From positions 124,001 through 188,000 of the forward strand of contig JAQWRY010000001.1 of NCBI GenBank assembly GCA_029243485.1: a DNA stretch of 64,000 nucleotides, given 5' to 3'. The stretch comes from Candidatus Binatia bacterium. Lineage in GTDB: Bacteria > Desulfobacterota > Binatia > UBA12015. The notes beneath the pieces are model-generated. The model saw only the letters and a program-made list of their open reading frames with translations. It was not told where the DNA came from and did not search any database. Shown in pieces: positions 7,340-56,163 of this stretch. The position numbers and the translations under genes are program-made. Position 1 is the first letter of the stretch. Every line of letters begins with the position of its first letter.

Positions 7340-7353
7340 CTCCCGTCTCTGCC

Positions 7354-7396
7354 GCCGGTCTCCCCGCCGGTCTCCCCCCCGGTCTCCCCGCCGGTC
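7354..7396 (+). repeat. 12-bp tandem repeat, about 3.6 copies
   Basis: The unit GCCGGTCTCCCC repeats three times with one or two changes (7354-7365, 7366-7377, 7378-7389) and a partial fourth copy to 7396, directly after the SLOG-like gene. It lies between genes, is not a dyad, and is too short and too regular in period for a CRISPR. It may simply be a slippage-prone minisatellite. Confidence 0.85.
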
Positions 7397-7523
7397 GGCA
7401 TGAGCGTTGCTTACTTCACTGCTCTGATGTGACGCAGGGCCGTTCCATGCGGCCCCAGCGCGGCATCTGTGACGAAATCGTGACGCAGGCGACGAAGAAT
7501 TGACTTTCAAAGGGGAACTTTCC

Positions 7524-8042: not shown

Positions 8043-8233
8043 AACGCTGCGCGCGAGGCCGAAAGCCACGCGGGCGCCCGCGGCCGCCGCTAGCGGCACC
8101 GGCGGTGGCCCCAGCCCCTCCCCCTGCGACGAGGCAGACACTTCGCCATCCGCCGGGCTTTTCCTCTGTCCCCCGACCGGTTACCGTCAATGATGTCGCG
8201 TCGCCCGCGACGTCCCACACGGTAGGAGCTACG

Positions 8234-8644: not shown

Positions 8645-9385
8645 CCGCGCCGCAGCGTACCAGGATTGTTGGAGGTTCCTCTGCTGGTACTCCGCGCATC
8701 CGAGGAGTCGCGCTCGTTGACCGGGCGGTGGCAGCACTCGTCGTGTGAAGCCTGCTTCACGGGTACACGGTGGTCAGCAGTCGGATGCGACGCCGCGGGA
8801 TGCTCGACCCGGCATACGTGCCTGGCTGATTCGAGTCGCGGCCCACTCCGCTCGATCACGTCGGGGGGGGGGGGCTCTAGCCTCCCGCCGAGTCCTCCAG
8901 CCGGAGAGGGTAGCCTGCGAGAGTCATGGATCGGCCCCGCTGATCTGGGCCCGAGCTTGCACGCACCGGCCAGAACCAAGGCATCCAAGAACGAACAGGC
9001 CACTCACGAGGCGCCGCGTACGGCTCGAACGAGTGCCTCCTCGTGCTTGGCCCCGAGGCCTCCGTACAGCCCGCCCGCTCGATCCTCACTCAGTCTAACA
9101 ATACTGCTCCGCCGTGGACCGCGGGCACGGCGCGAGAAGCACCGTCGCCCCACCCGGCCTGGCCCCACACCGCCCCCACCATTCGTGCGCCGTTGCGCTG
9201 TCCCCGTCGTCTGCGTACTCGGCTCACTCTGCACACGCGGTGCCGCGAGATGGGGCGCTCTCTCTCTTGTTCCAACTTTGCGTCGCTCTACCCTGGTGCG
9301 AAGTGATTGAGCCGTCAGCATGACTTTCACTTATGCTTGACGTTGCAGCGTTCACTGCTCACTACCAAGCAACCGGAGGGGGACC
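8645..9385. other. Non-coding gap of about 740 bp
   Basis: No reading frame here has a ribosome site, family motif or the third-position GC bias seen in neighbours. Notable contents are a run of 12 G at 8863-8874, a short imperfect dyad around 8881-8920, and a relatively AT-rich stretch at 9290-9360 that probably carries the DUF1800 promoter. A minus-strand stretch near 9000-9060 (GGLYGGLGAKHEEALV) looks protein-like and could be a gene remnant, but I cannot name it. The rest shows nothing I can support. Confidence 0.5.
9307..9337 (+). promoter_or_regulatory. Candidate sigma-70-type promoter for DUF1800/DUF1501
   Basis: TTGAGC (9307-9312) and TATGCT (9332-9337) are separated by 19 bases in a locally AT-rich region, about 50 bases before the DUF1800 start and its GGAGGGGGA ribosome site. 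Spacing is at the long end and both boxes are imperfect, so this is only a candidate. Confidence 0.25.
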
Positions 9386-10867
9386 ATGGGAGACGAGAAT
9401 ACCGCCTTGTCGGCGGGAGACGTGCGCCACCTTTTGCGCCGCACCGGATTCGGAGCGAAGCCGAAAGAGGTGGAGAAGATGTCGGCGAAGTACCCCACGC
9501 GTGGGGCGGCCGCTGACAAGCTCTTGAAGTTCAAACCAGCGAACTTTCGTCCGGGCGGCAAAGACATACGCGCCCGGCAGGTCAGTTGGTTCAAGTACAT
9601 GCTGAAGGGGAAGCGAGCACTGCAGGAAAAGATGGTGCTGTTCCTGCACGATCATTTCGCGACGAACAACGACACCCTCGGCGATGACCTGCAGATGGCG
9701 AATCAGAACCGCCTTCTGCGCCAAGGCTGCATCGGGGACTTCAAGCAGCTGGTGAAGGACATCAATCTCGACCCGGCGATGATGGACTTCCTGGACACGG
9801 TCCGGAATCGCAAAGAACAACCGAACGAGAACTACCCGCGCGAACTCCTGGAGCTCTTCACCGTCGGAGTGACGGACTTCCAGGGAAACAACAACTACGA
9901 ACAGGAAGACATCGTCCAGATCGCGCGTGCGTTCAGTGGATGGCGTCTCAACGAGAAAGACGACCCCTTCCTGCAAGAAAGCCGGCACGACTTCATGGAG
10001 GACTTCCCCAAGCGGGGGCCGAAGGTGATCTTCCAGACCACCGGCAGCTTCGGGCCGGGTGGGCGCTCGTTCACGACGCTCGGTGAAGGGGCGACGGAGA
10101 TCGAGGAGGTGATCGACATCCTCTTCGAGCACACCGACTCGGACGGCGAGAACACCGTCGCTCGCCGGATTGCCCGACGCCTCCTCGAGTACTTTGCCCA
10201 CGGGGCGTACGCGACGTCGGACCCGCCTACGGCTGCCGCTGCGGACGCGGTCATCGCGGAATCCGGCTTCGATTCGAACTGGGACCTTGGCGCATTGATC
10301 CGCGCGATCCTCGTGAGCGATGCGTTCTACGAGACCGCCGGTTCGGGCCCGGCGACACCGCGCTCCGTGAAGTGGCCGATCGACTACGCGGTCACCTCGA
10401 TGCGGCTCCTCGGAATGAAGCTGAAGGGCAAGGATGCCCGACTCGACGGCGGCGCGCGGCGCCGCATCGTCGACCACCTTTCCGACATGGGCCAGGAACT
10501 CTTCGACCCTCCGAGCGTATTCGGCTGGGATTGGGAGAACTCGTGGATCACGAGCCGCACGGTGCTGTCGCGGGCGATCTTCGCGCGCGATCTCACGGTC
10601 GCCCGCGGAAACAGTGCGACCGGCTTTCGACCACACAAGTTGATGGACACCGAACTCACCGACCCGCCGGCGATCGTCGACGCGGTAACGGACGTTCTCG
10701 GCGTTTCCGATCGGATCTCTCCTACGGAGCGCGCGATCTTGATCGACTACCTGACCGACGAGGGCGTCCAGTCCTCCATCGACCTCGAAAACGAGGACGT
10801 CGTCGAGCGCAAGCTCGCCGGCCTTTTCGCCGTCGTGATGCAATCGCCGGCCTACCAGCTCCACTAG
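9386..10867 (+). CDS. DUF1800 family protein
   Basis: The ATG is preceded by GGAGGGGGACC. The 493-residue protein has the DUF1800 signature features: HLLRRTGFGA near the start, LFLHDHFATNND at about 85, NENYPRELLELFTVGV at about 150, the AFSGWR segment, and VFGWDWENSWI towards the end. DUF1800 proteins are nearly always encoded directly before a DUF1501 protein, as here (15 bases apart). No signal peptide is visible on this one, while the DUF1501 partner has a Tat signal. The biochemical function is unknown; they are abundant in bacteria with complex outer surfaces. Confidence 0.92.
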   Translation: MGDENTALSAGDVRHLLRRTGFGAKPKEVEKMSAKYPTRGAAADKLLKFKPANFRPGGKDIRARQVSWFKYMLKGKRALQEKMVLFLHDHFATNNDTLGDDLQMANQNRLLRQGCIGDFKQLVKDINLDPAMMDFLDTVRNRKEQPNENYPRELLELFTVGVTDFQGNNNYEQEDIVQIARAFSGWRLNEKDDPFLQESRHDFMEDFPKRGPKVIFQTTGSFGPGGRSFTTLGEGATEIEEVIDILFEHTDSDGENTVARRIARRLLEYFAHGAYATSDPPTAAAADAVIAESGFDSNWDLGALIRAILVSDAFYETAGSGPATPRSVKWPIDYAVTSMRLLGMKLKGKDARLDGGARRRIVDHLSDMGQELFDPPSVFGWDWENSWITSRTVLSRAIFARDLTVARGNSATGFRPHKLMDTELTDPPAIVDAVTDVLGVSDRISPTERAILIDYLTDEGVQSSIDLENEDVVERKLAGLFAVVMQSPAYQLH

Positions 10868-10882
10868 AAGGGGGAGAACCAA

Positions 10883-12298
10883 ATGGCTATTTCTCGCAGG
10901 CAGTTTCTCGGCCGCAGCGGAGCGGTTGCCGGCGGCGTCGTCGGCGCCAGTCTCTTCGGCAATCCATTCACGCGTGACGCGATGGCGATGACGCTCGGCG
11001 ATCGATACGTCGTCTCGCTCTACCTCGATGGAGGCAACGACGGCCTCAACACGATCACGCCGGTAGACAACGGCGGCTCCGGCGCCCTTCGCGCCGACTA
11101 TGAAGCGGCGCGCAACACCGGCAGCGGGGGAATCCGTCTCTCCTCGGGCGAGCTGCTCGTTCCGGGCGGCCCTTCCCTCCTCGACCCCAACACCGGGTCG
11201 CAGCTCGGCTTCCATCCGGGCCTCTACGGACTCTCGAACCTCTACGGCCAGGGCAAGGTCGCCGTGATCCAGGGCTGCGGGTACCCGAACGCAAGCCTGT
11301 CGCACGACACCTCCGCCAAGGTCTGGGAGCGCGCGGATCCAAATCGTTCCGGGATCAGCACGGGCTGGGTCGGCCGACATCTCGCGGCGCACTTCGGCCC
11401 CTCGGACATTCCGGCAGTCGCGGTTCGAGGGTCGATCCCCGGCGAGTTCGATCAGACCACTACGAGCGTGCTGACGGTCTCGCGCGTGGAGCAGTTCAAC
11501 TTCCCATACGACAGCAGCAATGGCTCCGACTCGACCTTCCGGCGAAACGCCTTGATGGCACTAGCCGACGAGTCTCTGCTCTCCGGCCAGCCGGTCCAAT
11601 CGCAAGTCGGCGCGGCTGACAAATCGACGCTCCTCGCGGCCGATAGCTACCCGGGCCTGCACGACGCCTACGAGGACGACCGACCGTCGTTCGATCAGAT
11701 GTACGACGACCTCGGGACCAGCGCGGCTCGAGACCTTCGTGAGATCTCGAAAATCATCTACGGCGTCGAGAACGCAGTCCCCAACGTGAACGCTCGCTAC
11801 TTCGAGCTACGCAACGGCGGGTACGACAACCACTCCGACCAGGGCGGCGGGAGCCCGGGCGGACGACACTACAACAACCACGAGGAGGTCGGGCAGGCGC
11901 TCGAGACCTTCTACGCTGATTGCGACGACATGGGCGTGGCGGACAAGCTCATCGTCTTCGTCTGGAGCGAATTCTCCCGCCGGATCCTACAGAACGACAC
12001 GGGGACGGACCATGGCACGCAAGGGCCGATGTTCGTGCTCGGCGGCACGGTCAACGGCGGCGTCTACGGGAACCACCCCGACATCGCCGACGGCTCCCTC
12101 GAAAGCGGGAATACCATCTACACCCAGGACGTCGCGAACCCGTACCGCTCGACGGACTTTCGGGACGTGTACGGGACCATCATGAAGCACTGGGTGAACG
12201 TGCCGCACGCCACCGTGCTCTCCAATCTTCTCCCGCTCGACACCGGTGATCCGAATGAGCGGTGGGCCACCGAGAACTTCGACATGGGTTTCCTCTAG
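10883..12298 (+). CDS. DUF1501 family Tat-exported protein
   Basis: A GGGGGAG site lies before the ATG. The 471-residue protein starts MAISRRQFLGRSGAVAGGVV, a classic twin-arginine signal (SRRQFLG). Family features follow: VSLYLDGGNDGLNT, GFHPGLYGL, the VWSEFSRRILQND segment and the conserved DHGTQGPMFVLGG motif near residue 375. DUF1501 is distantly related to the alkaline phosphatase/sulfatase fold, but no substrate is established. It is coupled to the upstream DUF1800 gene and ends before a roughly 100-base gap to sthA. Confidence 0.92.
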   Translation: MAISRRQFLGRSGAVAGGVVGASLFGNPFTRDAMAMTLGDRYVVSLYLDGGNDGLNTITPVDNGGSGALRADYEAARNTGSGGIRLSSGELLVPGGPSLLDPNTGSQLGFHPGLYGLSNLYGQGKVAVIQGCGYPNASLSHDTSAKVWERADPNRSGISTGWVGRHLAAHFGPSDIPAVAVRGSIPGEFDQTTTSVLTVSRVEQFNFPYDSSNGSDSTFRRNALMALADESLLSGQPVQSQVGAADKSTLLAADSYPGLHDAYEDDRPSFDQMYDDLGTSAARDLREISKIIYGVENAVPNVNARYFELRNGGYDNHSDQGGGSPGGRHYNNHEEVGQALETFYADCDDMGVADKLIVFVWSEFSRRILQNDTGTDHGTQGPMFVLGGTVNGGVYGNHPDIADGSLESGNTIYTQDVANPYRSTDFRDVYGTIMKHWVNVPHATVLSNLLPLDTGDPNERWATENFDMGFL

Positions 12299-12397
12299 GT
12301 ATGACGGGGTGCCGAGCGGGTCTTTGCGCCGGCACCCCGCAAACCCGCGACATCACGAACCGGATCGGCTATGGTTCGGAATTCGAAGGGAGCGTCG

Positions 12398-13798
12398 ATG
12401 TCACAAGAGCATTTCGATCTACTCGTCATTGGGAGCGGACCCGCGGGCCAGAAGGGCGCGATCAACGCAGCCAAGCTCGGCAAGCGGGTCGCGATCGCCG
12501 ACGGCGCGCTCGTCCTGGGCGGTACCTGCCTCCACACCGGCACGATCCCGAGCAAGTCCCTCCGAGAGGCCGTCCTGTACCTCTCCGGGTACCGGCAGAA
12601 GGCGTTCTACGGGAAAAGTTACGCCGTCCAGCGCCGGGTCACGTTCCGCGATCTCTCGCTCCGCGTGTCCGAAGTCGTCGATCGCGAACTCGACGTGGTT
12701 CGCGATCAGCTCGCCCGCAACCGCGTCGAGATCCTCGACGGACACGCTACCTTCGTCGATCCAAACACAGTCGAGATCAAACGCGACAACGGGATTTCGA
12801 TCCGTGCCTCCGCCGACGGGATCCTGATCGCCTGCGGTGCGCGGCCCGCCCACTCGCCTACCGTGCCGGTCGACGGCCGCCGCATCTTCGACTCCGATCA
12901 GTTCGTGAGCGAGTCCCGCGGGGACCAGGAGGTCGTGCGCTCCCTCATCGTCGTGGGCGCCGGCGTGATCGGCCTCGAGTACGCGGCGATGGCCACGGCG
13001 CTCGGCGCGGACGTGACGATCATCGATGGTCGCCGCGACGTCCTCGAGTTCGTAGATCGCGAAATTCTGGAGGCGCTGTTCTACAACCTCCGAGAGAACA
13101 ACGCGACGCTGCGTTTCGGCGAGAAGGTCGTGTCGGTGGGCATCGACGATCGCGACCGCGTGTCCGCGCAGCTCGAGAGCGGGAAGAAGGTCGCCGCCGA
13201 CACGCTTCTCTTCACCGTCGGGCGACAAGCAAACGGAGATCGCCTCGGGCTAGAGGCCGCCGGGGTCGAGGTCGACAAGCGCGGACGAATCCAGGTCGAC
13301 GAAAACTTCCAGACGACCGCCTCGCACATCTACGCCGCGGGCGACGTGATCGGCTTTCCCGCCTTGGCGTCCACCTCGATGGAACAGGGACGAATCGCGA
13401 GCTGCCACATGTTCGGCGTGCCGTTCAAGCACACGCCGGAGCTCTTCCCCTATGGGATCTATACTCTCCCGGAGATCTCGATGGTCGGCAAGACCGAAGA
13501 GCAGCTCACGGACGCCAAGATCCCGTACGAGGTCGGCATGGCCCGCTTCAGCGAGCTCGCCCGGGGACAGATGATCGGCGACCGCACCGGCCGTCTCAAG
13601 ATTCTATTCGATCCCGATAGCCTGAAGCTGCTCGGCGTTCACATCATCGGCGACGGCGCCGCCGAACTCGTCCACATCGGCCAGACCGTGATGTACTTCG
13701 GCGGCACCATCGAGTTCCTCCGCGACGCCGTCTTCAACTACCCAACTCTCGCCGAGGGCTACAAGGTCGCGGCGTTCGACGGGTTGAACAAGCTCTGA
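12398..13798 (+). CDS. sthA: Soluble NAD(P)+ transhydrogenase SthA
   Basis: The start MSQEHFDLLVIG has an AAGGGAG site. The 466-residue flavoprotein has an FAD site (IGSGPAGQKGA, 11-21), the segment GGTCLHTGTIPSK at 41-53, an NAD(P) site (VVGAGVIGLEYAAMA) and a C-terminal dimerisation domain. Lipoamide dehydrogenases carry CxxxxC at the 41-53 segment; here only C44 is present and the second position is threonine, which is the pattern of SthA-type transhydrogenases. The enzyme interconverts NADH/NADP+ and NAD+/NADPH in the cytoplasm. An exonuclease III gene follows 3 bases after the stop, so the two are probably co-transcribed. Confidence 0.9.
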   Translation: MSQEHFDLLVIGSGPAGQKGAINAAKLGKRVAIADGALVLGGTCLHTGTIPSKSLREAVLYLSGYRQKAFYGKSYAVQRRVTFRDLSLRVSEVVDRELDVVRDQLARNRVEILDGHATFVDPNTVEIKRDNGISIRASADGILIACGARPAHSPTVPVDGRRIFDSDQFVSESRGDQEVVRSLIVVGAGVIGLEYAAMATALGADVTIIDGRRDVLEFVDREILEALFYNLRENNATLRFGEKVVSVGIDDRDRVSAQLESGKKVAADTLLFTVGRQANGDRLGLEAAGVEVDKRGRIQVDENFQTTASHIYAAGDVIGFPALASTSMEQGRIASCHMFGVPFKHTPELFPYGIYTLPEISMVGKTEEQLTDAKIPYEVGMARFSELARGQMIGDRTGRLKILFDPDSLKLLGVHIIGDGAAELVHIGQTVMYFGGTIEFLRDAVFNYPTLAEGYKVAAFDGLNKL

Positions 13799-46240: not shown

Positions 46241-47422
46241 GTGTCCCGACTCCTGAGCTTCCTTCGGGGAAAGTGGATGCCGCTCGTGACCGCGCTCGTG
46301 GTCGCGAGCGCCGGCTTCTTCATCTACCAGCGAATCGAGGACAACCTGCACCGCCTTCTCCCCGAGCAGCTGCAGACCCTCCTCTGCGCCGAAGACGGCG
46401 TCTCCGGACGACTTGCTCATGTCCAGCGAGCAGGCGGAGTTGCGACGCCTTCTGGCGCCTCACCTCGACAGTCAGCTGACAGACTTCATCGTTCTCGCGC
46501 CGACGGGGCGGATCATCGCGGCCTATCTGACCGAACAGATCGGCTCGGCCGACCTCGCTGAGCACCCGTTCGTGAAGCGCGCGCTCGCCGGCGACCCGGT
46601 CGTCTCGGTTCCGTTCCCGTCCCACATCGGGCTTCCGAACGCATCGGGCGTCGGGGACGTGGGCGAGCTCACCGAAAGCCTCCGCCGCGGAGTGATCACC
46701 CTCGACAGTCAGGACGTCGTCGACGCCACGACGGCCCGGACCATGGCCGAGACGCGCATGGGGGTCGATCGCCAAACCCTGCTCGAAGAGGCCGAACGCT
46801 ACCCGACGCGCTGGCTCGCGGAGTCTCGCCCCTCCGACGCGACCGCTTCGCCAACCGGGGCCGCCGCCTCGACCGCGGCGCCCCGACTTACCGAAGATCT
46901 GCTCTCGAACGACCCCGCCCGCGTCCGAAAGGCCCTCACGCGGGAAGATCTCGACGCCCGCGTCGCCGCGCTGATCGTCCCGTGGCTCGCCCATCCCGAA
47001 GTCCGGGGCGTGGCGTCGACGGCGTCATTCTGGCCCTCGTCAAACGCGAGGCCGAGGTCGACGAGACGCTCTGGGCCAATCAAGAAGTACAGGACGTTCA
47101 CGCGAGCTCGGTCCTGCTGGACGCTCCACAGCGACGCCGCGTTAAGCGCACCGCCGAGCACGTCTTCACGCTCCTCGCCGTGATCTTCGATCGTGCGCCG
47201 CTGCGATTCTCGCTGTTTGTCCTCGCGTCGGCGGACCCGAACCTGCGCGGAACCGCGCTCGAATACCTCGAGAACGTGTTGCCCGATGGCCTCAGGCGTG
47301 CTCTTTGGCGCCACGTGGCGCGGGAAAGCACCGTCATCCAATCCAGCCGATCGACCGAAGAGCTGGCCAGCGAACTCCAACGCACGACCTCCCCCTTGGT
47401 CGGTCGCCGGTCCCGTTCATGA
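46241..47422 (+). pseudogene. Broken gene: sensor N-terminus joined to HEAT-repeat C-terminus
   Basis: A GTG start reads SRLLSFLRGKWMPLVTALV and VASAGFFIYQRIEDNLHRLL then LQTLL, a membrane anchor plus the start of an extracytoplasmic sensor domain. The frame then fails; from about 46415 another frame continues SSEQAELRRLLAPHLDSQL and TDFIVLAPTGRIIAAYL, the later part of a CACHE-like domain, followed by a low-similarity stretch and HEAT-like pieces (LSNDPARVRKALTREDLDA, IVPWLAHPEVRG). From about 47010 the first frame resumes with VKRTAEHVFTLLAVIFDRAP and LRGTALEYLENVLPDGLRRA, a typical HEAT-repeat C-terminus, and stops at 47422 overlapping the next ATG (ATGA). Missing middle and frame changes indicate a dead gene whose 3' coupling to the transporter survives. 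Confidence 0.62.
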
Positions 47423-48825
47423 AGGAGCTCTCTCGGCCAGAGCGATTCCTGCGGATCTTCACCGAGATCCGCCCCGGAGAGGGCCGCACCGCCCTCCTCC
47501 TCTTCCTGAACGTCTTCCTGATCCTCTGCGCCTACTACTTCGTGAAGCCGCTGCGCGACGGGTGGATCGCCGTCTCGGCCATCGAAGGTCTGTCGAAGAT
47601 GGAGGTGAAGGCCTACTCCAGTTTCGGGCAGAGCATTCTGTTTCTCGGGGCGATCGGGGTGTACGCCCGGATGTCCTCCATGCTCCCGCGCGCCGTGCTG
47701 ATCTCGCGCACGACGATGTTCTGCATGTCGAACCTGGTGCTGTTCTGGTTCCTGCAGCCGAACTTCTTCCTCGCGAACCTTCCTGGCATGGGCATCATGT
47801 TCTACCTCTGGGTCGGGATGTTCGGCCTCTTCGTCGTGGCCCAGTTCTGGGCGTTTGCGGCGGATCTCTACACAGATGAGCGGGGCCGTCGGCTGCTCCC
47901 GATGATCGCGATCGGGGCCACGTCCGGGGCCACCGTGGGGTCGTTCATCGTCGAGCAGGTGGTCTACAGCGAGCTGCTGGACAGCGGAACGCTGCTCCTC
48001 CTGGCCAACATTCCGCTGGCCCTGTCGATCTGGCTCACACGCCAAGCCGACATTCTCGGGCCGCTGGGCGAGGGCTATCCCGAGGCCGGAGCCGGGGGGG
48101 CCTCACCGGAACCGGGGCCCGCGGAGAGGTCCGAAAACTCCGACGGGGCTTTCGCGCTGATCCGGGCGCACCACTATCTGATGCTCGTCGCGGCGGTCAC
48201 CCTGATCAACGCCTGGGTGAACACCAATGGAGAAAACCTGCTCTTCCGAGTAGTTCAGGAGGCTCTGGCCACCTCGGTCGAGGCCACCGGGGTCACCGAT
48301 CCCGCCCTCATCTTGCATGAGGTCCGCGAGGGCACCACCGCGTTCTACGGGGACTTCTTTTTCTGGGTGAACGTGACCGCGCTCCTGCTGCAGGCTCTGG
48401 TGGCGTCCCGACTCCTTGCTCTAGGCGGGTTTGGGGCTATCCTTCTCCTACTTCCTAGCATCGCCCTCGTGGGTTATACGGCAATGGCTTTCTTGCCGAT
48501 ATTGGGGGTGGTGAGGGTGATGAAAATCGCAGAAAACGCGACGGATTACTCCATCAATAATACGGCGTCGCAGGTGTTGTGGTTGCCTACGACTGCCGAA
48601 ATGAAGTTCAAGGCCAAGCCTGCGATCGCGACGTTCTGCGTCCGTCTCGGGGATGGCCTGGCCGCATTGACCGTCCTCGTGGGCGTACAGCTCATGAATC
48701 TGTCGACGCGGTCCTTCTTCCTTCTGAATGCCGCACTCGTTTTGCTTTGGCTCGGGGTGGCAGTGGCGGTGGTGGGTGAGCATGGACGGATCGTTGAATC
48801 GGGTGCGAGGAAAAATGCAGCCTAA
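47419..48825 (+). CDS. NTT/Npt-type nucleotide transporter-like membrane protein
   Basis: The ATG overlaps the stop of the broken upstream gene. The 468-residue protein has 11-12 membrane helices. The start, EIRPGEGRTALLLFLNVFLI then LCAYYFVKPLRDGWIA, is the conserved opening of the ATP/ADP translocase-like group (Npt1/Npt2, TlcC), and FWAFAADLYTDERGRRLLPM plus IGATSGATVGSFI and KIAENATDYSINNTASQVLWLP are further group motifs. Classical NTTs serve intracellular parasites and plastids; free-living bacteria have relatives whose direction and substrate are unknown. It overlaps the start of a serine hydrolase gene by 11 bases. Confidence 0.82.
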   Translation: MKELSRPERFLRIFTEIRPGEGRTALLLFLNVFLILCAYYFVKPLRDGWIAVSAIEGLSKMEVKAYSSFGQSILFLGAIGVYARMSSMLPRAVLISRTTMFCMSNLVLFWFLQPNFFLANLPGMGIMFYLWVGMFGLFVVAQFWAFAADLYTDERGRRLLPMIAIGATSGATVGSFIVEQVVYSELLDSGTLLLLANIPLALSIWLTRQADILGPLGEGYPEAGAGGASPEPGPAERSENSDGAFALIRAHHYLMLVAAVTLINAWVNTNGENLLFRVVQEALATSVEATGVTDPALILHEVREGTTAFYGDFFFWVNVTALLLQALVASRLLALGGFGAILLLLPSIALVGYTAMAFLPILGVVRVMKIAENATDYSINNTASQVLWLPTTAEMKFKAKPAIATFCVRLGDGLAALTVLVGVQLMNLSTRSFFLLNAALVLLWLGVAVAVVGEHGRIVESGARKNAA

Positions 48826-49762
48826 GTCGGCACATCTCCTGGTTTGTTTGGTTGCGACGTTGGCCGCCCTTCCCTTCGTCACGCGGCCCGCGTCGGCCGA
48901 CGACTTGAGCGGAGGAGAGATCTTCCTCGAAGCGGACGCAGCGCCGCTGTGGGATGCGATCGACCCGGTCTTCCAGCGCCAACTCGAGCAACGGCTCGAT
49001 ACGCTCGGATTCACGCCCGCGATCCGCAACAAGAACCTCGGCGTCGCCGTGGTCGACATCACGGACCCCGAAGCGCCCCGCGTCGCCGCCGTGAACGGCG
49101 ACGTCATGATCTACGCCGCGAGCCTCCCGAAGATCGCGATCCTTCTGGGTGCCTTCGAACGCATCGAAGCCGGCGAGCTCCAGCTCACCGCCGAGAACGA
49201 GCGCTTGCTACACCTCATGATCCAGCGCTCTTCGAACAAGGCCGCTACGGTCATGATGGACCGCGTCGGCAAGGAGTACATCGCCGAGACCCTGCGATCC
49301 GACGAGTACCGCCTCTACGACGTCAGGCACAACGGCGGCCTCTGGGCCGGCAAGGACTACGGCAAGGCCGGCCTCTGGCGCCGCGATCCGCTCCACAACC
49401 TCTCGCACGGTGCGACGGCCATGCAGGTGGCCCGCTTCTACTACATGATGGAGACGGGCGAACTCGTCGACGAAGAGGCCAGCGCGAAGATGAAGGAGCT
49501 GATGGCCGACTCAGCCATCAAGCACAAGTTCGTCAAGGCCCTCGACCGCATCGACCCGGACGCGGAGATCTACCGCAAGTCCGGCAGTTGGCAGCAGTGG
49601 CACGCCGACAGCGCCATCGTCGAACGCGATGGCCGCCGCTACATCGCCGTCGGCCTCTGCGAAGACCAACAGGGCGGCCGCTGGCTCGAGCGCATCTTCC
49701 ACGTCATGGACGCCCTCGTCATGGAGTCCCCCTCCACCGAAGTCGCCCGCCTCGAAGAGTAG
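48815..49762 (+). CDS. Exported SxxK serine hydrolase, class A beta-lactamase-like
   Basis: ATG 48815 with GCGAGG is chosen; it overlaps the transporter stop. The 315-residue protein has a signal peptide (LLVCLVATLAALPFVTRPASA) and the penicillin-recognising motifs: S103-L-P-K106 (YAASLPKIAIL), an SxN-type RSSNKAATVMM, and the third motif KSG (YRKSGSWQQWH). The omega-loop glutamate of true beta-lactamases is not clear, so a D,D-peptidase or esterase is as likely. It acts in the periplasm. A longer paralogue with the same three motifs lies head-on 300 bases downstream. Confidence 0.86.
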   Translation: MQPKSAHLLVCLVATLAALPFVTRPASADDLSGGEIFLEADAAPLWDAIDPVFQRQLEQRLDTLGFTPAIRNKNLGVAVVDITDPEAPRVAAVNGDVMIYAASLPKIAILLGAFERIEAGELQLTAENERLLHLMIQRSSNKAATVMMDRVGKEYIAETLRSDEYRLYDVRHNGGLWAGKDYGKAGLWRRDPLHNLSHGATAMQVARFYYMMETGELVDEEASAKMKELMADSAIKHKFVKALDRIDPDAEIYRKSGSWQQWHADSAIVERDGRRYIAVGLCEDQQGGRWLERIFHVMDALVMESPSTEVARLEE

Positions 49763-50064
49763 GGACGTTGGTTAATCTCGGCGATTTCGTTTAGTCGCTG
49801 CGCTTATTGCGGGCTCGTCGGGGGGCCTGCCCGAGCTTTCTCCCGATTTCGGCCGGGCACGGGAGTCGCTGCAGGGCTGGCGTTCCAAACGGCACTCAGT
49901 TGGTAAGGGGTGGACCTTCGGAAGTTCTCTCGCTCGGCGGCGGCTGGTCTTCCAAAGTCGTCTTACTCCGGCGGAAGGTCTTCACATCAACGGAGCGCGG
50001 TGCGTCCTTGGCCCCGGCCTTGATGAAAGTTGGGCGCGGGAGTCAGCCTCGTCGCACGCGTTGT
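49763..50064. other. Convergent intergenic region, about 300 bp
   Basis: It separates two convergent serine hydrolase genes. GGCTCG (49812-49817) and CGAGCT (49832-49837) can form a short stem with extra G-C pairs inside, followed by TTTC, a weak terminator candidate for the forward gene. The rest has no open frame I believe and no repeat. Base composition is slightly lower in GC than the flanking genes. Confidence 0.4.
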
Positions 50065-51360
50065 CTACTGAGCGACTTGTGTGGTCCGGAGAGGATGGAG
50101 TTGCTGCATCATTTGCTGGATCCGGGTTCCGAGGCGTTCGTGTTCTTCGGCGGCGTTCTTGCGCAAGACGTTGGAGAGAACGACGACCATGTAGCGCATC
50201 GGGGGGTTTCGTTCGGGCTCCTCGACGACGGCGATCGACGCGAGGAAGTTCCAGACGTTGCCGTGGTACTTCTCACAGACGTGACCGCGCTCCGGGCGGC
50301 ATTTATAGAGTGAGCCGGACTTGAAGTAGACGGCCGAGTTGCGCAGCGCCGGAGACGAGGCGTAGCGGATTCGGCGGTCGGTCACGTAGAGGAGCTTCTT
50401 GATCTCTTTGCTCGACCAGGGGTCGACGAGCTCGCCCATTTCCATGGCGACGAGGAACTCCATCAGGGAGCGCGCGGACGCGTAGCTCGACGTTCCCGGA
50501 AGGCGCTTTTTTCCCTCTCGGGTGAATAGGCTTCCCTGCCGGAGCTTGCCCCGGTTCAGGCCGTTGCGGCCGACAGGTTCCTGCAGCACTGCCTTGAGCT
50601 CGCCGGAGAGTTGACCCTTCCCCGCCGAATTCAGGTACGCCCGGCTCGCCTCGTGCGACTTCGGGTACCCCGAGCCGAAGTGCTTCATCAGCACGGCCTC
50701 ACGTCCCACCATCGACGCCGCCGCATTGGAACTCGGCGACATCATGTGATCGAGGAGCGTATAGAGGGTCATCTGCTCGCCCTCTGCGATCGGCCGACGA
50801 CGGACCTTCTTGCCGCCGATATGGAAGACGGGGACTTCATGGGAATCGGTCCGGATGAACTCGTCAGTGACGACGACCGTCTCCTTCAGCATGTCCCGGC
50901 GCTTGCGAATGTCCGGCTCGATGTCCGCGAGTGTCTGGAACATGCCCAGCGCGAGCAGGACCTTGCCGACGCTCCCCGCGTTCATCATCGCGTCCGGGTT
51001 CACTTCGGCATACCGCGGGCGATCGGGATCGCTCACGTCGAGCAGGGCGACGCCGTAGCCGCCCACGTCGCTCCCAAGCTCGTCGCGGAGCATCTGATTC
51101 AGCTGCGGATCCGGCGCGGGAATCTGGAAATTCGGTTTGTGCTGCAACGACAGGACGATCTTGTCCGTAGTCAGGTCGCCCCCCGGCGGGAGCACCTTCC
51201 CGCCCGAGTTCCTCTGGGCGAGGCGGAAGCCTTCGATACGGGTAATGCCGCTGTTCGGGTAGCCATCTAGGGGATACGCGCCGACCCCGCCGGCCAGAAG
51301 AGCCGTCGCGGAAGCAACGGCCGCGGAAACACAGATGGTTCGTCGGGTGATTCGGCGCAT
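50065..51360 (-). CDS. Exported SxxK serine hydrolase, long form
   Basis: ATG 51360 is preceded by AAGGAG; an ATG at 51393 is possible. The 431-residue protein has a signal peptide with a twin-arginine-like start (RRITRRTICVSAAVASATAL). The motifs are S130-V-G-K133 (NAGSVGKVLLALG), SPSSNAAASMVG (SxN) and YFKSGSLYKC (KSG). It shares GYGVALLDVSDPDRPRYAEV with the shorter neighbour's VAVVDITDPEAPRVAAVNG. Extra segments, including a cysteine pair (KCRPERGHVCEKY), distinguish it. It follows the dikinase-like gene by 37 bases on the same strand, so the two should be co-expressed. Confidence 0.86.
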   Translation of the reverse strand: MRRITRRTICVSAAVASATALLAGGVGAYPLDGYPNSGITRIEGFRLAQRNSGGKVLPPGGDLTTDKIVLSLQHKPNFQIPAPDPQLNQMLRDELGSDVGGYGVALLDVSDPDRPRYAEVNPDAMMNAGSVGKVLLALGMFQTLADIEPDIRKRRDMLKETVVVTDEFIRTDSHEVPVFHIGGKKVRRRPIAEGEQMTLYTLLDHMMSPSSNAAASMVGREAVLMKHFGSGYPKSHEASRAYLNSAGKGQLSGELKAVLQEPVGRNGLNRGKLRQGSLFTREGKKRLPGTSSYASARSLMEFLVAMEMGELVDPWSSKEIKKLLYVTDRRIRYASSPALRNSAVYFKSGSLYKCRPERGHVCEKYHGNVWNFLASIAVVEEPERNPPMRYMVVVLSNVLRKNAAEEHERLGTRIQQMMQQLHPLRTTQVAQ

Positions 51361-51397
51361 GCCGGACTCCTTGTCTCTCGTTTTGGAATTCATCCGC

Positions 51398-54307
51398 TCA
51401 GTGGACCCGGTCGAGCGGAACCGTACCCACGAGATCCGGCCCGCCCGTGCGGGCATCGAGCCCCTTTAGGTAGGTGCTCTCTTTTGCGCCCTTCGACTCG
51501 ACGAAGGGCCGGATCTGAAGCACCGCGAGTTTCCCGCCGCGGAACCCGAACTCGATGTCCGCCGGCATCGGCTCTCCGAGATCCCCCCGCAGAGCCGGGA
51601 AGCGTTGCGGGGCATCCCTCGAGAGCTGGATCAGAGCCTGGATCTCGTTCGGCTGCAGGACGCGCTTGCCTCCCTGCGTCGGCACCTTCGTGACGCCACC
51701 CGAACGGTTCAGAACCCGCCGATACGGCGCGGTCGCGTTCGCGAGCAGTCGCGTTTCTCCGGTCGCCGGGTTCACCAGCAGCGACTCCGCCGCCTGACCG
51801 TCGACCGCTCCACCGACGCCCTCGTTGACCGCGATGGAAAGCCAACCATCCCGGTTGCCCTGCACGTCCGTGGTCACCATCACGCCGGACTTCTCCGACG
51901 GGAAGCCGAGCTGAATCAGCACGGCCGGGAATACGTACTCGGGCTGCGTCATGTGGGATTGACGCCAAGCGTACGCACGGTCGGTGAACGGGGATGCCAT
52001 CACGTCTTTGATCGCCTTCTCAATGTTCGTGAAGCCGACGACATTCGGCACCGTGAGATTGAGGCCCGCACCCGTGAACCCATCGAGGTCCTCGACGTTG
52101 GTGTCGCTTCGCACGAAGACGCCGTACGTTCCGTCCGCCCCGAAGTGCTTGTGCAGTGCGGTTCGGAGGCGACTCTGGAAGTCGGACGAGAACTCGACGT
52201 TCTCGATCCAGGCCCGCAGCCGCGCGAGGAACGCCTTGGTCGCGCGCTTCTTCTCCGGCCCCTCGGACGTCGAGCCGAGCATCTCGTACTGCTTCTTCAT
52301 CCAATCCCAGACCGAAGGACCGCCGGTCTCGATCGGCCGATCGAGGAGCTTTCGGAACTCCCCGAACGGAATCACGACGCCATCCGGTACCGCCTTACCG
52401 AAGGCATTGCGCAGCTCACCCAGGTTGGCGCTCTTCGGGCCGGCCACGCGCCCCGAATCCGCCGCGCGCAGCGAGGACATCGGCACGACACCGGTCGTAT
52501 TGAGATCGAGCTTGTTCAGATCCGGTCGGATGACCAGCGTGTGGCCCGCCTCCATCTGTCCGAAGATCGGGTCCCATTGAGGCCCATCGTTTGCCAGCTC
52601 CACGACGCCTCCGGGACTCACCGCGAGCACGACGCGCTGCCCCTGCTTCGCACGCACGCGCGAGAGCATCTCGTGGCCGACGACGACATTGGGAATCCCG
52701 AGATTTCGCGCGAGCAACTGCACGTGCGAAAGGGAGTTGCCCTCGCCTTCGGTCAGAATACCGCCGACCGGAGGTAGCTCCGCGATCGTCTCCGGGAGAA
52801 GATAGATCCCCTTCGAATCGAAGTCCCCGGCCTCCTCAGCGGCGCCGGGGACACGAAGAACCCCACGCGCGATCCCCGGATTCAACGCCCGCAGTCCCGA
52901 CCCGACGGTCTGCCCGAACACCTTGTGCTCGACACCCGCACCGGCGTTCGCATCGTTCGTGAGCGAGTCGGTGACAACGCCGTAGAAGAGCATCGGACCG
53001 CCGCGAAGCCGGTCCTGCGGATACAGATTGGCGATCGTATCGAGCCGCGAGAAGTGCTGCACCGCTTCGCCGAAGTTGAACGCGACTGTTCGTCCGGCCC
53101 ACTCGGGACCGCGACCGAGGTACTTCACTTCCTCACGATACTTGTCGATCGTGGGTGCGCCGCCGCGCGACACGCGTACGATCGAGTTGCGAAGGCTCAC
53201 GGCCTGGCCCGGCGAGATCAGCCCCGAGCCGTAGAGGCCACTGGTCAAGTACCAGAGCCACTCGAGGCGCTGCCGCCGCGTGGCATTCGGCGCCTGCAGA
53301 GCCAATTCGTTGCCGGCCGTGTAAACCCCGTCTTCGAGTGCGAGGCTCGCCTCGACCAGGGCACGACGCGCCGCGGGGCCACGCCACTCCCCCGCACGCT
53401 CACGAAGGACACCCAGCAGATCGGCCCCGTTCTCGAGGCGCGAGGAAGGGTCGGCCCCGTCGAGCCCCGTCGCGCGTTGGATCAACTGATCCCGCAGCAT
53501 CCCGCCCGGGAGCCGGGCCGCTGCCGCCCGGACGGCGTTTCCGGCGTTGTTCGCCGCGTAGAGCGTGTCGATGTCGGTGGCGAGCTGCGAGTAGCTCCCC
53601 TGGAGCGAGCCGCGCCCATTGCTGGCCGCGTATTCCCGAACACGCCCCGCATCGCCCGAGTCGGGCGATCCGTGAATCTTGACCCGCAGGTTCTTGAAGC
53701 CGGAGTCCGCGCGCGCGATGCGCATCGCGTCGGCCCGGACCTGCTGTGCCGTCACGTCCCCGGGCGCGATCTCGCGCGGCACGAGCCGCACGGTCTCCCG
53801 CATAAGATACCAGCGATCGTCGCGCGCCCACTGCGGGTCGGCCAGGACGGCGGCGAGGATCCGCTCCCCGCCGGCTTCTTCGTCCTCGGCCTGGAGGGCT
53901 CCGCGATACGTGAGCGTCGCGCGCATGACCCAGCCGTCGTCTGCCTCACGCAGGAAGCGCTCCAACAGAAGCTGCTTCAAGGTACGCAGATCCGGTGCCG
54001 GGCCGACGAACGGGGCACCGTCGAGCTCGGCGAAGACGTTCGCAATCTTGAAGCCGCCGTCTCGTAGCTGCTTCGCCTTCGAGTTCCAAAGGCCGTGCTG
54101 AACGCCGCCTCCGTGGCCGCTACATCCGGCGCGGGCCGGCCGCACCGTGCCGTCCTCGCAAAACCAACGTAGTCCTTCGAAGGGACCACGCGGCGCCCCC
54201 TTCATCTCCTCGACCCACACGCGCAGGGTCGCCTCATCGGGAAGCGCGGTAGCGGTGCCCGGCAAGGCCAAAGCCAAAGCCAGCACGACGAGTGCAACGA
54301 ATCGCAT
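51398..54307 (-). CDS. Exported glucan-water-dikinase-like/PEP-synthase-like protein
   Basis: AAGGAG precedes the ATG. The 969-residue protein starts with a signal peptide (MRFVALVVLALALALPGTAT then A) and no later membrane segment. Residues 22-470 are an unassigned helical domain with C50 and C62. A swivelling phosphohistidine domain follows (about 475-575) with H528 in NSLSHVQLLARNLGIPNVVV. The ATP-grasp domain comes last (620-935): GPKSANLGELRNAF, PDGVVIPFGEF, VRSDTNVEDLDGFTGAGLN (731-749) and ADIEFGFRGGKLAVLQIRP (916-934, metal-binding acids). Histidine domain before ATP-grasp and the RSDxNxEDLxGxxGAGL motif are features of glucan water dikinase. An ATP-dependent enzyme outside the cytoplasm is unexpected. 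Confidence 0.8.
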   Translation of the reverse strand: MRFVALVVLALALALPGTATALPDEATLRVWVEEMKGAPRGPFEGLRWFCEDGTVRPARAGCSGHGGGVQHGLWNSKAKQLRDGGFKIANVFAELDGAPFVGPAPDLRTLKQLLLERFLREADDGWVMRATLTYRGALQAEDEEAGGERILAAVLADPQWARDDRWYLMRETVRLVPREIAPGDVTAQQVRADAMRIARADSGFKNLRVKIHGSPDSGDAGRVREYAASNGRGSLQGSYSQLATDIDTLYAANNAGNAVRAAAARLPGGMLRDQLIQRATGLDGADPSSRLENGADLLGVLRERAGEWRGPAARRALVEASLALEDGVYTAGNELALQAPNATRRQRLEWLWYLTSGLYGSGLISPGQAVSLRNSIVRVSRGGAPTIDKYREEVKYLGRGPEWAGRTVAFNFGEAVQHFSRLDTIANLYPQDRLRGGPMLFYGVVTDSLTNDANAGAGVEHKVFGQTVGSGLRALNPGIARGVLRVPGAAEEAGDFDSKGIYLLPETIAELPPVGGILTEGEGNSLSHVQLLARNLGIPNVVVGHEMLSRVRAKQGQRVVLAVSPGGVVELANDGPQWDPIFGQMEAGHTLVIRPDLNKLDLNTTGVVPMSSLRAADSGRVAGPKSANLGELRNAFGKAVPDGVVIPFGEFRKLLDRPIETGGPSVWDWMKKQYEMLGSTSEGPEKKRATKAFLARLRAWIENVEFSSDFQSRLRTALHKHFGADGTYGVFVRSDTNVEDLDGFTGAGLNLTVPNVVGFTNIEKAIKDVMASPFTDRAYAWRQSHMTQPEYVFPAVLIQLGFPSEKSGVMVTTDVQGNRDGWLSIAVNEGVGGAVDGQAAESLLVNPATGETRLLANATAPYRRVLNRSGGVTKVPTQGGKRVLQPNEIQALIQLSRDAPQRFPALRGDLGEPMPADIEFGFRGGKLAVLQIRPFVESKGAKESTYLKGLDARTGGPDLVGTVPLDRVH

Positions 54308-54849
54308 CAACAAATCTCCTTGGCGGCAACCGACCAGGCACGGTAGGTCGCCTCTCCGAACAAGACGAAGTGGATCTCGCTCAACGTGCCGACGCTTTCG
54401 CGGCACGTGGTGATCGACAGTGGGGCGGCCTCCCCCAGCGGGTAACCGAACACCCCGCAAGAGATGGCCGGAAAGGCCACGGACTCGAGCCCGTTCTCGT
54501 GCGCCAGCGCGAGCGACGCCCGATAGGCATTTCGTAGAAGCGGCGCCGATGTGGCCGCCGAAACGTACACGGGCCCGACGGTATGAATGACGTACCGCGC
54601 CGGGAGGTCGAACCCGGGAGTAAGCCGGGCCTCGCCGGTCGGGCAACGGACCCCAGGGCCAGCTTCCGGGGCCTCGCGGCAGGCGTCGAGGAGCTCCGGG
54701 CCGGCAGCGCGGTGGATCGCACTGTCTACGCCGCCCCCGCCCAGCATCTGCTCGTTCGCCGCGTTCACGATGGCATCGACCGAGACCCGAGTGAGGTCTC
54801 CTTCTTGCAGCACGAGCGTGCAGGTTTCGGTGAGAGCGAAGTGATCCAC
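54307..54849 (-). CDS. Macro-domain protein (ADP-ribose binding/hydrolase-like)
   Basis: A GTG start is used; the stop overlaps the dikinase-like ATG by one base (TGATG), so translation is coupled. The 180-residue protein is a single macro domain: LVLQEGDLTRVSVDAIVNAA, NEQMLGGGGVDSAIHRAAGP (MacroD-type loop), HTVGPVY, and AFPAISCGVFGYPLGEAA. These match the MacroD/YmdB class, which hydrolyses O-acetyl-ADP-ribose and mono-ADP-ribose on proteins. No signal peptide is visible, so unlike its two operon partners it should be cytoplasmic. Confidence 0.93.
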   Translation of the reverse strand: MDHFALTETCTLVLQEGDLTRVSVDAIVNAANEQMLGGGGVDSAIHRAAGPELLDACREAPEAGPGVRCPTGEARLTPGFDLPARYVIHTVGPVYVSAATSAPLLRNAYRASLALAHENGLESVAFPAISCGVFGYPLGEAAPLSITTCRESVGTLSEIHFVLFGEATYRAWSVAAKEIC

Positions 54850-54897: not shown

Positions 54898-56163
54898 CTA
54901 GGAGACGGGCCGCAAAGTGCCCAGAACGCCCGCCTTTTCGAGGGCCTCAACCTTCTCGTCGTCGTAGCCCAGGACGTCGCGCAGAACCCGCTCGTTGTCG
55001 CGCCCGGGCTCCACAGCCGCCTTGGCCAGAACTGGGAGCGTCTCGTCCGGGAACTTCAGAGGGGTCGGCATGAGATCCGTCCCGCGCTCCGCGTGGCCAT
55101 CGAACCCGAGCCGGTGCTGGAATTGCGGATCCTGCGCGATCGACGTGGTGTCGTTCACCGGCGCAATCGGGGTGTTGAACTCGCGCCCAAACTCGACCCA
55201 TTCCCGGGTCGTGCGAGTCTCGAAGATCGCGGCGAGCTCCCGTCGAAGCTCGAGGTCGCCCCGCGCGTGGTCGCCGAACTTCGCACCCGGTCGCCGCGCG
55301 TAGAGCTCCGGCTTGCCGACGCCGTGCGCGAAGTTCTTCCAGAACTCGCGCTCGGAGGCCATGAACAGCACCGTACCGTCCTTGGACGGATAGTACTGAT
55401 ACCGAACGGCATCCTTCATGCTGTTCTCACCCAGCGGTCGGCGCGGCCCCCGCCCGTCTCCGTCGTTGCCCGTGACTTCGGCCGCGGGTCGCTCGTAGGC
55501 CTTGTTGCCCTCGATGCCGTTCCAGTTGAAAGCCGCAGCCGCATCGCTCTGCGCCACCTCGAACCGACTGCCCTCACCCGTTGCACGCGCGCGCAGGATT
55601 GCAGAGACGATCCCGAACGCCGCGAACAACGGTCCGGCGTGGATCCCGATCGTCGTATAGGCCGGGATCTCCGGCAGGCCGTCTTCGCGCGTCCCGGGCC
55701 GTGCGACGCCCGCCCACGCGTCGTACGCGATCCCGTGGCTCGGCATGTCGCGGTAAGGACCGGTGAGACCGTATCCGCTGATCGCGCAGTAGACGAGCGC
55801 CGGATTCGTTTCACGAAGCCGGTCCCAGCCGAGGCCGCGACGCTCCAGCGCACCGGGGCGCATGCCTTCAACGACGGCGTCCGCCCCGCGCACGAGGTCG
55901 AGATACACGTCCACACCCTCGGGCTTGCGCAGATCTAGCGTGAGGCTCTGCTTCCCGCGATTGAGGTGCCAATGAAGGATCGAGATTCCGTCCACGATCG
56001 GAAACGCCATCTTTCGCACGTAGTCCCCGCCAGGCGGCTCGACCTTGATCACCTCCGCGCCCAAGTCCGCGAGATGCATCGCGACGCCGCCGGGACCGAG
56101 CAACGCACTCTCGATCACCCGCACGCCCGCGAGGGGAGCCCCTGCACCGCTTCCGTCCGCCAT
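54898..56163 (-). CDS. CaiB/BaiF family class III CoA transferase
   Basis: The 421-residue protein opens with APLAGVRVIESALLGPGGVA then MHLADLGAEVIKVEPPGGD, the family start. SLTLDLRKPEGVDVYLDLV, RPGALERRGLGWDRLRE, YCAISGYGLTGPYRDMPSHG and IAYDAWAG (the Asp that carries the acyl/CoA intermediate) are in place. Class III transferases move CoA between carboxylic acids such as carnitine, formate, bile acids or aromatic acids. Its substrate is open; the catabolic setting suggests an acid degraded through CoA esters. The quinone oxidoreductase gene is divergent across 81 bases. Confidence 0.93.
   Translation of the reverse strand: MADGSGAGAPLAGVRVIESALLGPGGVAMHLADLGAEVIKVEPPGGDYVRKMAFPIVDGISILHWHLNRGKQSLTLDLRKPEGVDVYLDLVRGADAVVEGMRPGALERRGLGWDRLRETNPALVYCAISGYGLTGPYRDMPSHGIAYDAWAGVARPGTREDGLPEIPAYTTIGIHAGPLFAAFGIVSAILRARATGEGSRFEVAQSDAAAAFNWNGIEGNKAYERPAAEVTGNDGDGRGPRRPLGENSMKDAVRYQYYPSKDGTVLFMASEREFWKNFAHGVGKPELYARRPGAKFGDHARGDLELRRELAAIFETRTTREWVEFGREFNTPIAPVNDTTSIAQDPQFQHRLGFDGHAERGTDLMPTPLKFPDETLPVLAKAAVEPGRDNERVLRDVLGYDDEKVEALEKAGVLGTLRPVS

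What the first reader, a model, noticed from the sequence alone, without database searches (positions are those of the whole stretch)
47419..54849. Possible envelope phosphorylation module: exported GWD-like dikinase, nucleotide transporter, macro domain and two SxxK hydrolases
Within 7.5 kb lie an NTT-type nucleotide transporter, two exported SxxK serine hydrolases, an exported protein with complete phosphohistidine (H528) and ATP-grasp motifs in glucan-water-dikinase order, and a translationally coupled macro-domain protein. GWD/PPDK enzymes need ATP, which is not normally in the periplasm. A transporter able to move nucleotides outward would solve that, and the serine hydrolases point to peptidoglycan or another wall polymer as substrate. 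I know no described system of this composition. The functional link is my inference from adjacency and overlaps.
Basis: partly seen in the sequence, partly recalled or inferred. Interest (0 to 1): 0.75.

Follow-up and report, generated by a model that had tools for sequence, protein, structure and literature searches.

The report
Exported dikinase paired with ATP carrier
Several groups of uncultured bacteria keep together genes for a probably exported ATP-using phosphate-transfer enzyme, a carrier of the ATP/ADP type and cell-wall-type enzymes, which suggests that they use ATP outside the inner membrane to modify their envelope, something bacteria are not thought to do routinely.

Summary
In detail: an NTT-family carrier, two SxxK proteins with export signals, and a 969-aa protein with an export signal, phosphohistidine (H528) then ATP-grasp; a macro-domain gene overlaps the last. 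The carrier-SxxK-dikinase link is not chance. In 148 genomes of the class the dikinase and this SxxK clade each occur in 20, sharing 19; all 13 genomes with a close NTT relative have the dikinase. SxxK genes lie beside the dikinase in 22 of 24 usable loci, NTT-family genes in 16. In another class an NTT is the next recognised gene downstream in 6 of 6 dikinase genomes. Active-site residues are invariant in 23 dikinases; so are the window protein's only two cysteines. The macro gene was seen in one genus only. Most likely, NTT carriers supply periplasmic ATP, the dikinase phosphorylates H528 and passes phosphate to an envelope polymer, perhaps peptidoglycan. Composition, conservation and intact motifs are shown; export is predicted by a simple rule; transport direction, catalysis and acceptor are inferred. 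It has glucan-water-dikinase (GWD) order but fails the GWD-specific model. I saw no such system in the paper listings searched.

The parts
47419..48825 (+). NTT-family (ATP/ADP carrier type) membrane transporter, 468 aa
   Evidence: profile of 14 rows hits solved ADP,ATP carriers 9j3n/9j3j at E 6e-29/8e-24; 11 of 14 rows hit PF03219, this one does not; the only match to itself in this genome at E<=1e-5
48815..49762 (+). SxxK1: SxxK serine hydrolase (PF13354) with export signal; ATG at 48815 overlaps the end of the NTT gene
   Evidence: PF13354 E 1.4e-22; S103xxK106, S139-S-N141, K255-S-G257, invariant in 22 rows; signal peptide by rule
50065..51393 (-). SxxK2: second SxxK hydrolase with export signal, 442 aa, starts 4 bp after the dikinase stop
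   Evidence: PF13354 E 1.8e-8; SVGK from 141, SSN from 221, KSG from 358; signal peptide by rule
51398..54307 (-). Phosphohistidine/ATP-grasp dikinase with export signal, 969 aa
   Evidence: PPDK_N E 9e-29, PEP-utilizers E 4e-6; 23-row alignment with invariant active-site residues
54245..54307 (-). Likely signal peptide of the dikinase (residues 1-21; cleavage after ATA placed by eye)
   Evidence: sequence; rule met (best score with a start two codons upstream and another cleavage place)
54122..54160 (-). Cys50 and Cys62, the only cysteines of the protein; possible disulfide
   Evidence: invariant in 23 of 23 rows; only Cys in the protein
52625..52801 (-). Phosphohistidine mobile domain (residues 503-561), H528 at 52724-52726
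   Evidence: Pfam PEP-utilizers; SHVQLLAR motif
51476..52444 (-). ATP-grasp domain (residues 622-944) with K625, R733, E919, Q931, R933
   Evidence: Pfam PPDK_N; residues invariant
46241..47404 (+). Broken remnant: start of a dCache-Ser/Thr-kinase gene joined to the end of an NTT-HEAT gene, in more than one frame
   Evidence: tblastn with the whole genes of genome G003; whole genes in L028
54307..54849 (-). Macro-domain protein overlapping the dikinase start; neighbour in this genus only, not part of the conserved module
   Evidence: PF01661 E 1.8e-43; found in 4 of 28 dikinase loci, all genus g1

Best explanation
A dedicated periplasmic, ATP-fuelled phosphotransfer module. NTT-family carriers in the inner membrane exchange nucleotides so that ATP becomes available outside (inferred). 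The exported dikinase binds ATP in its ATP-grasp domain, puts one phosphate on H528, and its mobile domain swings to the N-terminal half, which holds the acceptor (inferred from the mechanism of PEP-synthase/GWD enzymes, recalled). The acceptor is most likely a hydroxyl of an envelope polymer, with peptidoglycan or a peptidoglycan-linked glycan the leading candidate because the usual partners are SxxK and L,D-transpeptidase-like proteins with export signals. These edit or link stem peptides at or around the modified sites (inferred). Shown here: composition, conservation, intact active-site motifs, family membership of the carrier. Predicted by a simple rule: export.
For: Genome level: dikinase in 20 of 148 class genomes; this SxxK clade in 20 of 148, 19 shared (Fisher 9e-22); close NTT (E<1e-100) in 13, all dikinase genomes (Fisher 5e-14). 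Locus level, 24 loci not cut inside the dikinase: SxxK in 22, within 400 bp in 21; NTT-family gene in 16. Another class: in 6 of 6 dikinase genomes the next recognised gene downstream on the same strand is an NTT, then an L,D-transpeptidase-like gene. The window-type NTTs form one group of 14 rows from 13 genomes, support 100/100, all dikinase genomes. All 23 aligned dikinases keep H528, K625, R733, E919, Q931, R933. Export rule met by 26 of 26 dikinases scored, controls 0 of 8. Only two cysteines in the window protein, both invariant in 23 rows.
Against: No biochemistry. NTT direction and substrate unknown; the alignment to solved carriers lacks the acidic residue of their ELWGS stretch and swaps Lys/Arg in LRDTKD, so the substrate may differ. 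NTT genes were not seen in 8 of 24 loci and SxxK not in 2 of 24; no SxxK in the three second-class loci where the upstream side is held. NTTs of dikinase loci as a whole are not one clade (8 label changes, shuffled mean 16), and 20 of 34 genomes with any NTT-like match lack the dikinase. The export rule also passed 1 of 9 NTTs and failed 4 of 9 SxxK1 and 2 of 8 SxxK2 rows. P values ignore relatedness. The SxxK search profile was built from dikinase loci. The structure model was useless (pLDDT 34), so the acceptor domain is unread.
Confidence: 0.5

Rival explanations
1. The NTT is an importer: the cluster salvages nucleotides or nucleotide-like compounds from the periplasm, and the dikinase acts on a small molecule there.
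For: The functionally characterised NTTs come from parasites and plastids and take up nucleotides or ATP (Major et al. 2017, PMC5381601, passages); NTT fusions of free-living bacteria have no assigned function there.
Against: The dikinase itself would still need a phosphate donor outside the cell; dikinase genomes are not reduced (3.2-7.8 Mb); usual partners are SxxK or L,D-transpeptidase-like proteins.
Confidence: 0.2
2. The exported enzyme is a phosphate-activated ligase or condensing enzyme (as PigC/RedH in the same superfamily) that builds or attaches a peptide or other polymer in the periplasm, which SxxK or L,D-transpeptidase-like enzymes then join to peptidoglycan.
For: PigC and RedH models hit the ATP-grasp part, far below their cut-offs; SxxK or SHGC-motif proteins are the usual partners; in three loci the cluster lies beside genes with the domains of RloB and RloC (Pfam for one locus), tied to envelope and cell shape in Pseudomonas (PMC12239564, passages).
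Against: Those model hits cover only the ATP-grasp domain, which the other superfamily models hit as well.
Confidence: 0.15
3. Antibiotic-inactivating pair: a rifamycin-phosphotransferase-like enzyme plus beta-lactamase-like proteins.
For: RIF phosphotransferase and beta-lactamase models are among the hits.
Against: Rph models match the ATP-grasp part only and far below cut-off; the SxxK groups share no acidic residue across all 22 rows between SxN and KTG, though each group has its own; the conserved NTT is unexplained.
Confidence: 0.06
4. The dikinase runs backwards and makes ATP outside from a phosphorylated donor, AMP and phosphate, and the NTT imports that ATP.
For: Reversibility is known for PPDK-type enzymes (recalled).
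Against: No PEP/pyruvate-binding C-terminal domain was found.
Confidence: 0.05
5. Chance neighbourhood.
For: Loci of one genus are not independent.
Against: 19 of 20 genome overlap, 22 of 24 adjacency, and adjacency of NTT in a different class.
Confidence: 0.02

Closest known systems
Alpha-glucan, water dikinase (GWD/PWD) of plants and algae
   Same: Phosphohistidine domain followed by a C-terminal ATP-grasp domain (order of GWD recalled); intact His and ATP-site residues; no PEP-binding domain found.
   Different: Bacterial and exported by prediction; no starch-binding domain seen; GWD phosphohistidine model only 13.7 bits against a 27-bit cut-off; N-terminal half without a Pfam family.
PEP synthase / pyruvate phosphate dikinase
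   Same: Same ATP-grasp and mobile domains; profile hits solved PEP synthases at E down to 2e-34.
   Different: Reverse domain order, no PEP/pyruvate domain, signal peptide.
NTT ATP/ADP carriers (plastid NTT1, Chlamydia Npt1 type) and NTT-HEAT(-cNBD) fusions
   Same: Same family by profile; NTT-HEAT and NTT-HEAT-cNBD genes are in the same loci, architectures described by Major et al. 2017 (PMC5381601, passages).
   Different: That paper calls the fusions' functions unknown, and its text nowhere holds the words dikinase, periplasm or peptidoglycan.
SLC35B1/AXER with Golgi and ER lumenal kinases (recalled, no call)
   Same: Concept: a carrier feeds ATP to phosphotransfer enzymes in a compartment outside the cytosol.
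   Different: Unrelated proteins; eukaryotic.
Class A beta-lactamase-like / D,D-peptidase SxxK enzymes (PF13354)
   Same: SxxK, SxN, KTG motifs and hits to solved beta-lactamase-fold proteins and PBP4.
   Different: No shared general-base Glu across the 22 rows; genomic setting.

Membership tests
Glucan water dikinase (GWD) | Phosphohistidine domain before a C-terminal ATP-grasp domain | tested here: met
   Pfam positions 503-561 then 622-944
Glucan water dikinase (GWD) | GWD phosphohistidine model PF22973 over its cut-off | tested here: not met
   13.7 bits, cut-off 27; the one match in the genome is this gene, but 5 of 14 control genomes also ring, none over the cut-off; 1 of 23 members, E 0.22
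Glucan water dikinase (GWD) | Starch/glucan-binding module in the N-terminal part | tested here: not met
   no carbohydrate-binding family among the matches of 23 members at E<=1
Glucan water dikinase (GWD) | Phosphorylates alpha-glucan with ATP, giving AMP and Pi | not testable with these tools
   needs enzyme assay
PEP synthase / PPDK | PEP/pyruvate-binding TIM-barrel domain at the C terminus | tested here: not met
   not among the families matched by 23 members at E<=1
PEP-utilising dikinase superfamily | Active-site His and ATP-grasp Lys, Arg, Glu, Gln, Arg | tested here: met
   H528, K625, R733, E919, Q931, R933 invariant in 23 rows
NTT ATP/ADP carrier | Sequence relation to characterised NTTs | tested here: met
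   profile vs 9j3n/9j3j E 6e-29/8e-24; PF03219 in 11 of 14 rows, not in the window protein alone
NTT ATP/ADP carrier | Moves adenine nucleotides | not testable with these tools
   needs transport assay; ELWGS acidic residue of solved carriers not kept
Class A beta-lactamase | SxxK, SxN and KTG motifs | tested here: met
   invariant in 22 rows
Class A beta-lactamase | General-base Glu of the omega loop | tested here: inconclusive
   no acidic column shared by all 22 rows between SxN and KTG; no invariant Glu within SxxK1 (9 rows) or SxxKp (8), two within SxxK2 (5)
Macro domain (O-acetyl-ADP-ribose deacetylase type) | Family model over cut-off | tested here: met
   PF01661 147.7 bits over 22, NF001664 210.9 over 200
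L,D-transpeptidase (EXP550, partner in relatives, not in window) | YkuD model over cut-off | tested here: not met
   5 of 20 members weak, best E 0.026; in six genomes, EXP550 genes of three (G037, G003, G055) ring at 13.1-15.5 bits, cut-off 23.4, those of the other three not at all at E<=5
L,D-transpeptidase (EXP550) | Catalytic SxGC motif with upstream His (recalled) | tested here: met
   S384-H-G-C-T388 and H341 invariant in 20 aligned members; a narrower pattern printed 15 ORFs

The most novel reading that the evidence does not exclude
Some bacteria run ATP-dependent chemistry in the periplasm on purpose: an ATP carrier of the NTT family exports ATP for a secreted dikinase that phosphorylates the cell wall or a wall-linked polymer, a route of wall modification not known before.
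Probability: 0.42. Interest if true: 0.92.

Novelty: categorically new. Interest (0 to 1): 0.8.

Why it matters
The periplasm is taught as a compartment without ATP-driven enzymes (general knowledge, recalled). A conserved gene set that pairs an exported dikinase with ATP/ADP-type carriers would break that rule and would suggest a function for NTT and NTT-HEAT carriers of free-living bacteria, which Major et al. 2017 left open. It also makes a direct test possible: a small set of genes can be moved into laboratory E. coli and assayed.

Tried and rejected
Macro domain as part of the module: rejected, found in 4 of 28 loci, all genus g1. Membership in GWD: not claimed. Beta-lactamase function: not favoured, but the general-base test is inconclusive. 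Structure of the dikinase: AlphaFold with three near-identical sequences gave pLDDT 33.6, not used; no fold search was run. Homologues on plasmids: one distant ATP-grasp match in Natrinema. PDB search with the EXP550 profile gave no match below E 0.16. Promoter scan found nothing and terminator-like sites were fewer than the shuffle mean. Papers: the listings (15 of 27,459 shown; 20 of 60; none found; 10 of 32; 3 of 3; 2 of 2; 15 of 26) showed no title or abstract start describing this system; only open-access PMC papers are held and the rest of those lists was not seen. The named-genome scan found two close relatives only, so distribution outside this phylum is untested. Dropped before counting loci: two distant partial matches, G002:C82 (L021, fetched as L044) and L022; loci cut inside the dikinase (L034, L038, L068, L069) were set aside from the 24. 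In one search rows whose profile match began after position 25 were not scored.
Full report
What is there. The window belongs to a 6.5 Mb draft genome in 88 contigs; the one named-genome scan gave two relatives, a record titled Deltaproteobacteria bacterium isolate OFTM293 and one titled bacterium isolate Co_bin.122, 86% and 85% identical over the dikinase. The stated genes exist: NTT 47419-48825 (+), SxxK1 48815-49762 (+), SxxK2 50065-51393 (-), dikinase 51398-54307 (-), macro 54307-54849 (-). NTT and SxxK1 overlap by 11 bases; macro stop and dikinase start share one base; SxxK2 starts 4 bp after the dikinase ends (coordinates; letters).

The dikinase. Pfam sees a PEP-utilizers mobile domain and the PPDK_N ATP-grasp domain in 23 of 23 rows, in that order in the window protein. 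The order is that of glucan water dikinases (recalled) and the reverse of PEP synthase. In the 23-row alignment H528, K625, R733, E919, Q931 and R933 are invariant (positions), and the profile aligns these motifs to the solved PEP synthase 8a8e. The window protein has two cysteines only, C50 and C62, both invariant in 23 rows, which fits a disulfide in an exported protein. A simple rule for signal peptides, tried on several possible starts, was met by 14 of 14 and 12 of 12 scored dikinases of the two subfamilies, by 0 of 8 cytosolic window proteins, and by 1 of 9 NTTs; this is not SignalP. The first 480 or so residues have no Pfam family. A structure prediction with three near-identical sequences failed (pLDDT 33.6).

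The carrier. The window NTT alone gives only a weak model hit. As a 14-row profile (11 single-domain rows and 3 NTT-HEAT rows) it finds the solved ADP,ATP carriers 9j3n and 9j3j at E 6e-29 and 8e-24, and 11 of 14 rows hit PF03219. In that alignment the acidic residue of the ELWGS stretch is not kept, so the substrate cannot be taken for granted. NTT-HEAT and NTT-HEAT-cNBD genes, architectures described by Major et al. 2017 (PMC5381601; passages read), lie in the same loci.

The SxxK proteins. Both window proteins have SxxK, SxN and KSG; these are invariant in 22 rows. No acidic residue between SxN and KTG is shared by all 22, but each of the three groups has its own invariant acidic residues, including two Glu in the 5 SxxK2 rows, so beta-lactamase chemistry is neither shown nor excluded. 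The signal-peptide rule was met by 5 of 9 SxxK1, 6 of 8 SxxK2 and 11 of 11 SxxKp rows scored, both window proteins included; misses may be wrong starts.

Co-occurrence. In the 148 genomes searched as the class, 20 have the dikinase, 20 have this SxxK clade, 19 have both; Fisher 9e-22 without correction for kinship. The exceptions are G482 (dikinase cut by a contig end) and G025 (SxxK only). The SxxK profile came from dikinase loci, which favours finding those genes, but does not by itself explain the lack elsewhere at E<=1e-20. A close NTT relative (E<1e-100) occurs in 13 genomes, all dikinase-positive (Fisher 5e-14). Of the 34 genomes with any NTT-like match at E<=1e-10, 14 have the dikinase, so other NTT clades live without it. 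In a tree of 48 different NTT regions, rooted at the midpoint, the window-type NTTs form one group of 14 rows from 13 genomes (support 100/100), all dikinase genomes; the NTTs of dikinase loci taken together fall in several places (8 label changes, shuffled mean 16).

Gene neighbourhood. Of 28 loci (27 fetched plus the window), 24 are not cut inside the dikinase. SxxK genes lie in 22 of 24, at most 375 bp away in 21; NTT-family genes in 16 of 24. Misses: SxxK in L029, L064; NTT in L025, L027 (2 kb of contig on that side), L029, L035, L036, L041, L042, L043. By subfamily: window type (12 loci, 6 genera) SxxK 11, NTT 10; second type (12 loci, 6 genera) SxxK 11, NTT 6, and in 12 of 12 a protein with an export signal here called EXP550, not found in the 12 window-type loci. 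EXP550 keeps SHGCT and an upstream His in 20 aligned rows, as L,D-transpeptidases do (recalled), but reaches the YkuD model only weakly (5 of 20 members) or not at all (three of six genomes), so this naming is tentative.

A second class. The phylum sample gave 5 of 395 genomes, the window's own included (only two candidates scored per genome, so a lower bound). In the class of one of them, G320, 6 of 85 genomes have the dikinase; in the class of another, G399, 1 of 23, G399 itself. In all 6 of the G320 class the next recognised gene downstream on the same strand is an NTT, followed by EXP550 (a fragment at the contig end in G558); in G320, G575, G556 and G579 an NTT-HEAT-cNBD gene follows, and a fragment of one in G584. 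G320 had been seen before; the other five were new. In G579 the dikinase is split over two contigs and in G584 its frame is broken. SxxK can be judged in only three of the six, where the upstream side is held (G320, G556, G579): none was seen. So the commonest core is dikinase plus NTT plus a partner with an export signal, SxxK or EXP550.

What it is likely to do. An enzyme with intact dikinase residues and an export signal needs a phosphate donor outside the cytoplasm; the recurring neighbour is a carrier of the ATP/ADP family. The simplest reading is that the carrier feeds the enzyme. The wall-type partners point to peptidoglycan or a wall-linked polymer. In three sister-family loci the cluster sits beside genes with the domains of RloB and RloC (for all three, Pfam for one), which in Pseudomonas act in osmotic tolerance, biofilm formation and cell shape (PMC12239564; passages). 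Each functional step is inference. Direction of transport, the phosphate donor and the acceptor are open.

The macro gene was found only in this genus. The window itself carries the wreck of two more genes upstream of the NTT: a dCache protein kinase and an NTT-HEAT gene, whole in G003.

Novelty. I saw no description of an exported dikinase paired with an NTT in the rows listed, a library of open papers only. Extracellular ATP in bacterial cultures is reported (PMC3882102, listing and abstract start); the passages of PMC6335424 concern a periplasmic ATP-degrading enzyme.

Noticed in passing
46241-47404: Remnant joining part of the first 175 residues of a dCache-Ser/Thr kinase to the HEAT end of an NTT-HEAT protein, with frame changes; in G001 only a piece of the HEAT end was found, in G003 both genes are whole.
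   Followed up: partly
L025 (G000:C86:683000-702900), 6290-13499: Second dikinase locus in the same genome, 35% identical, with an SxxK gene, an MFS transporter and an EXP550 gene, no NTT seen.
   Followed up: partly
L030, L031, L032: In sister-family genomes the cluster lies beside inactive-transglutaminase-7TM and ATP-grasp genes, the domains of Pseudomonas RloB and RloC.
   Followed up: partly
L110, L111, L114, L116: Apparent four-gene operon dikinase - NTT - EXP550 - NTT-HEAT-cNBD on one strand in another class (for G320 the fourth gene is seen in L064).
   Followed up: yes
54898-56163: CoA-transferase family III gene upstream of the macro gene on the same strand, 48 bp away; also beside it in G001, not called in G002 or in the short stretch held of G003.
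   Followed up: no
L029 (G001:C417): Another dikinase copy in G001 without SxxK or NTT in the stretch held, near a relative of a protein of no known Pfam family found between SxxK1 and SxxK2 in G003.
   Followed up: no
L035, L037, L039: SxxK open frames run to about 630 residues or more, so the SxxK domain may carry a long extra region there.
   Followed up: no
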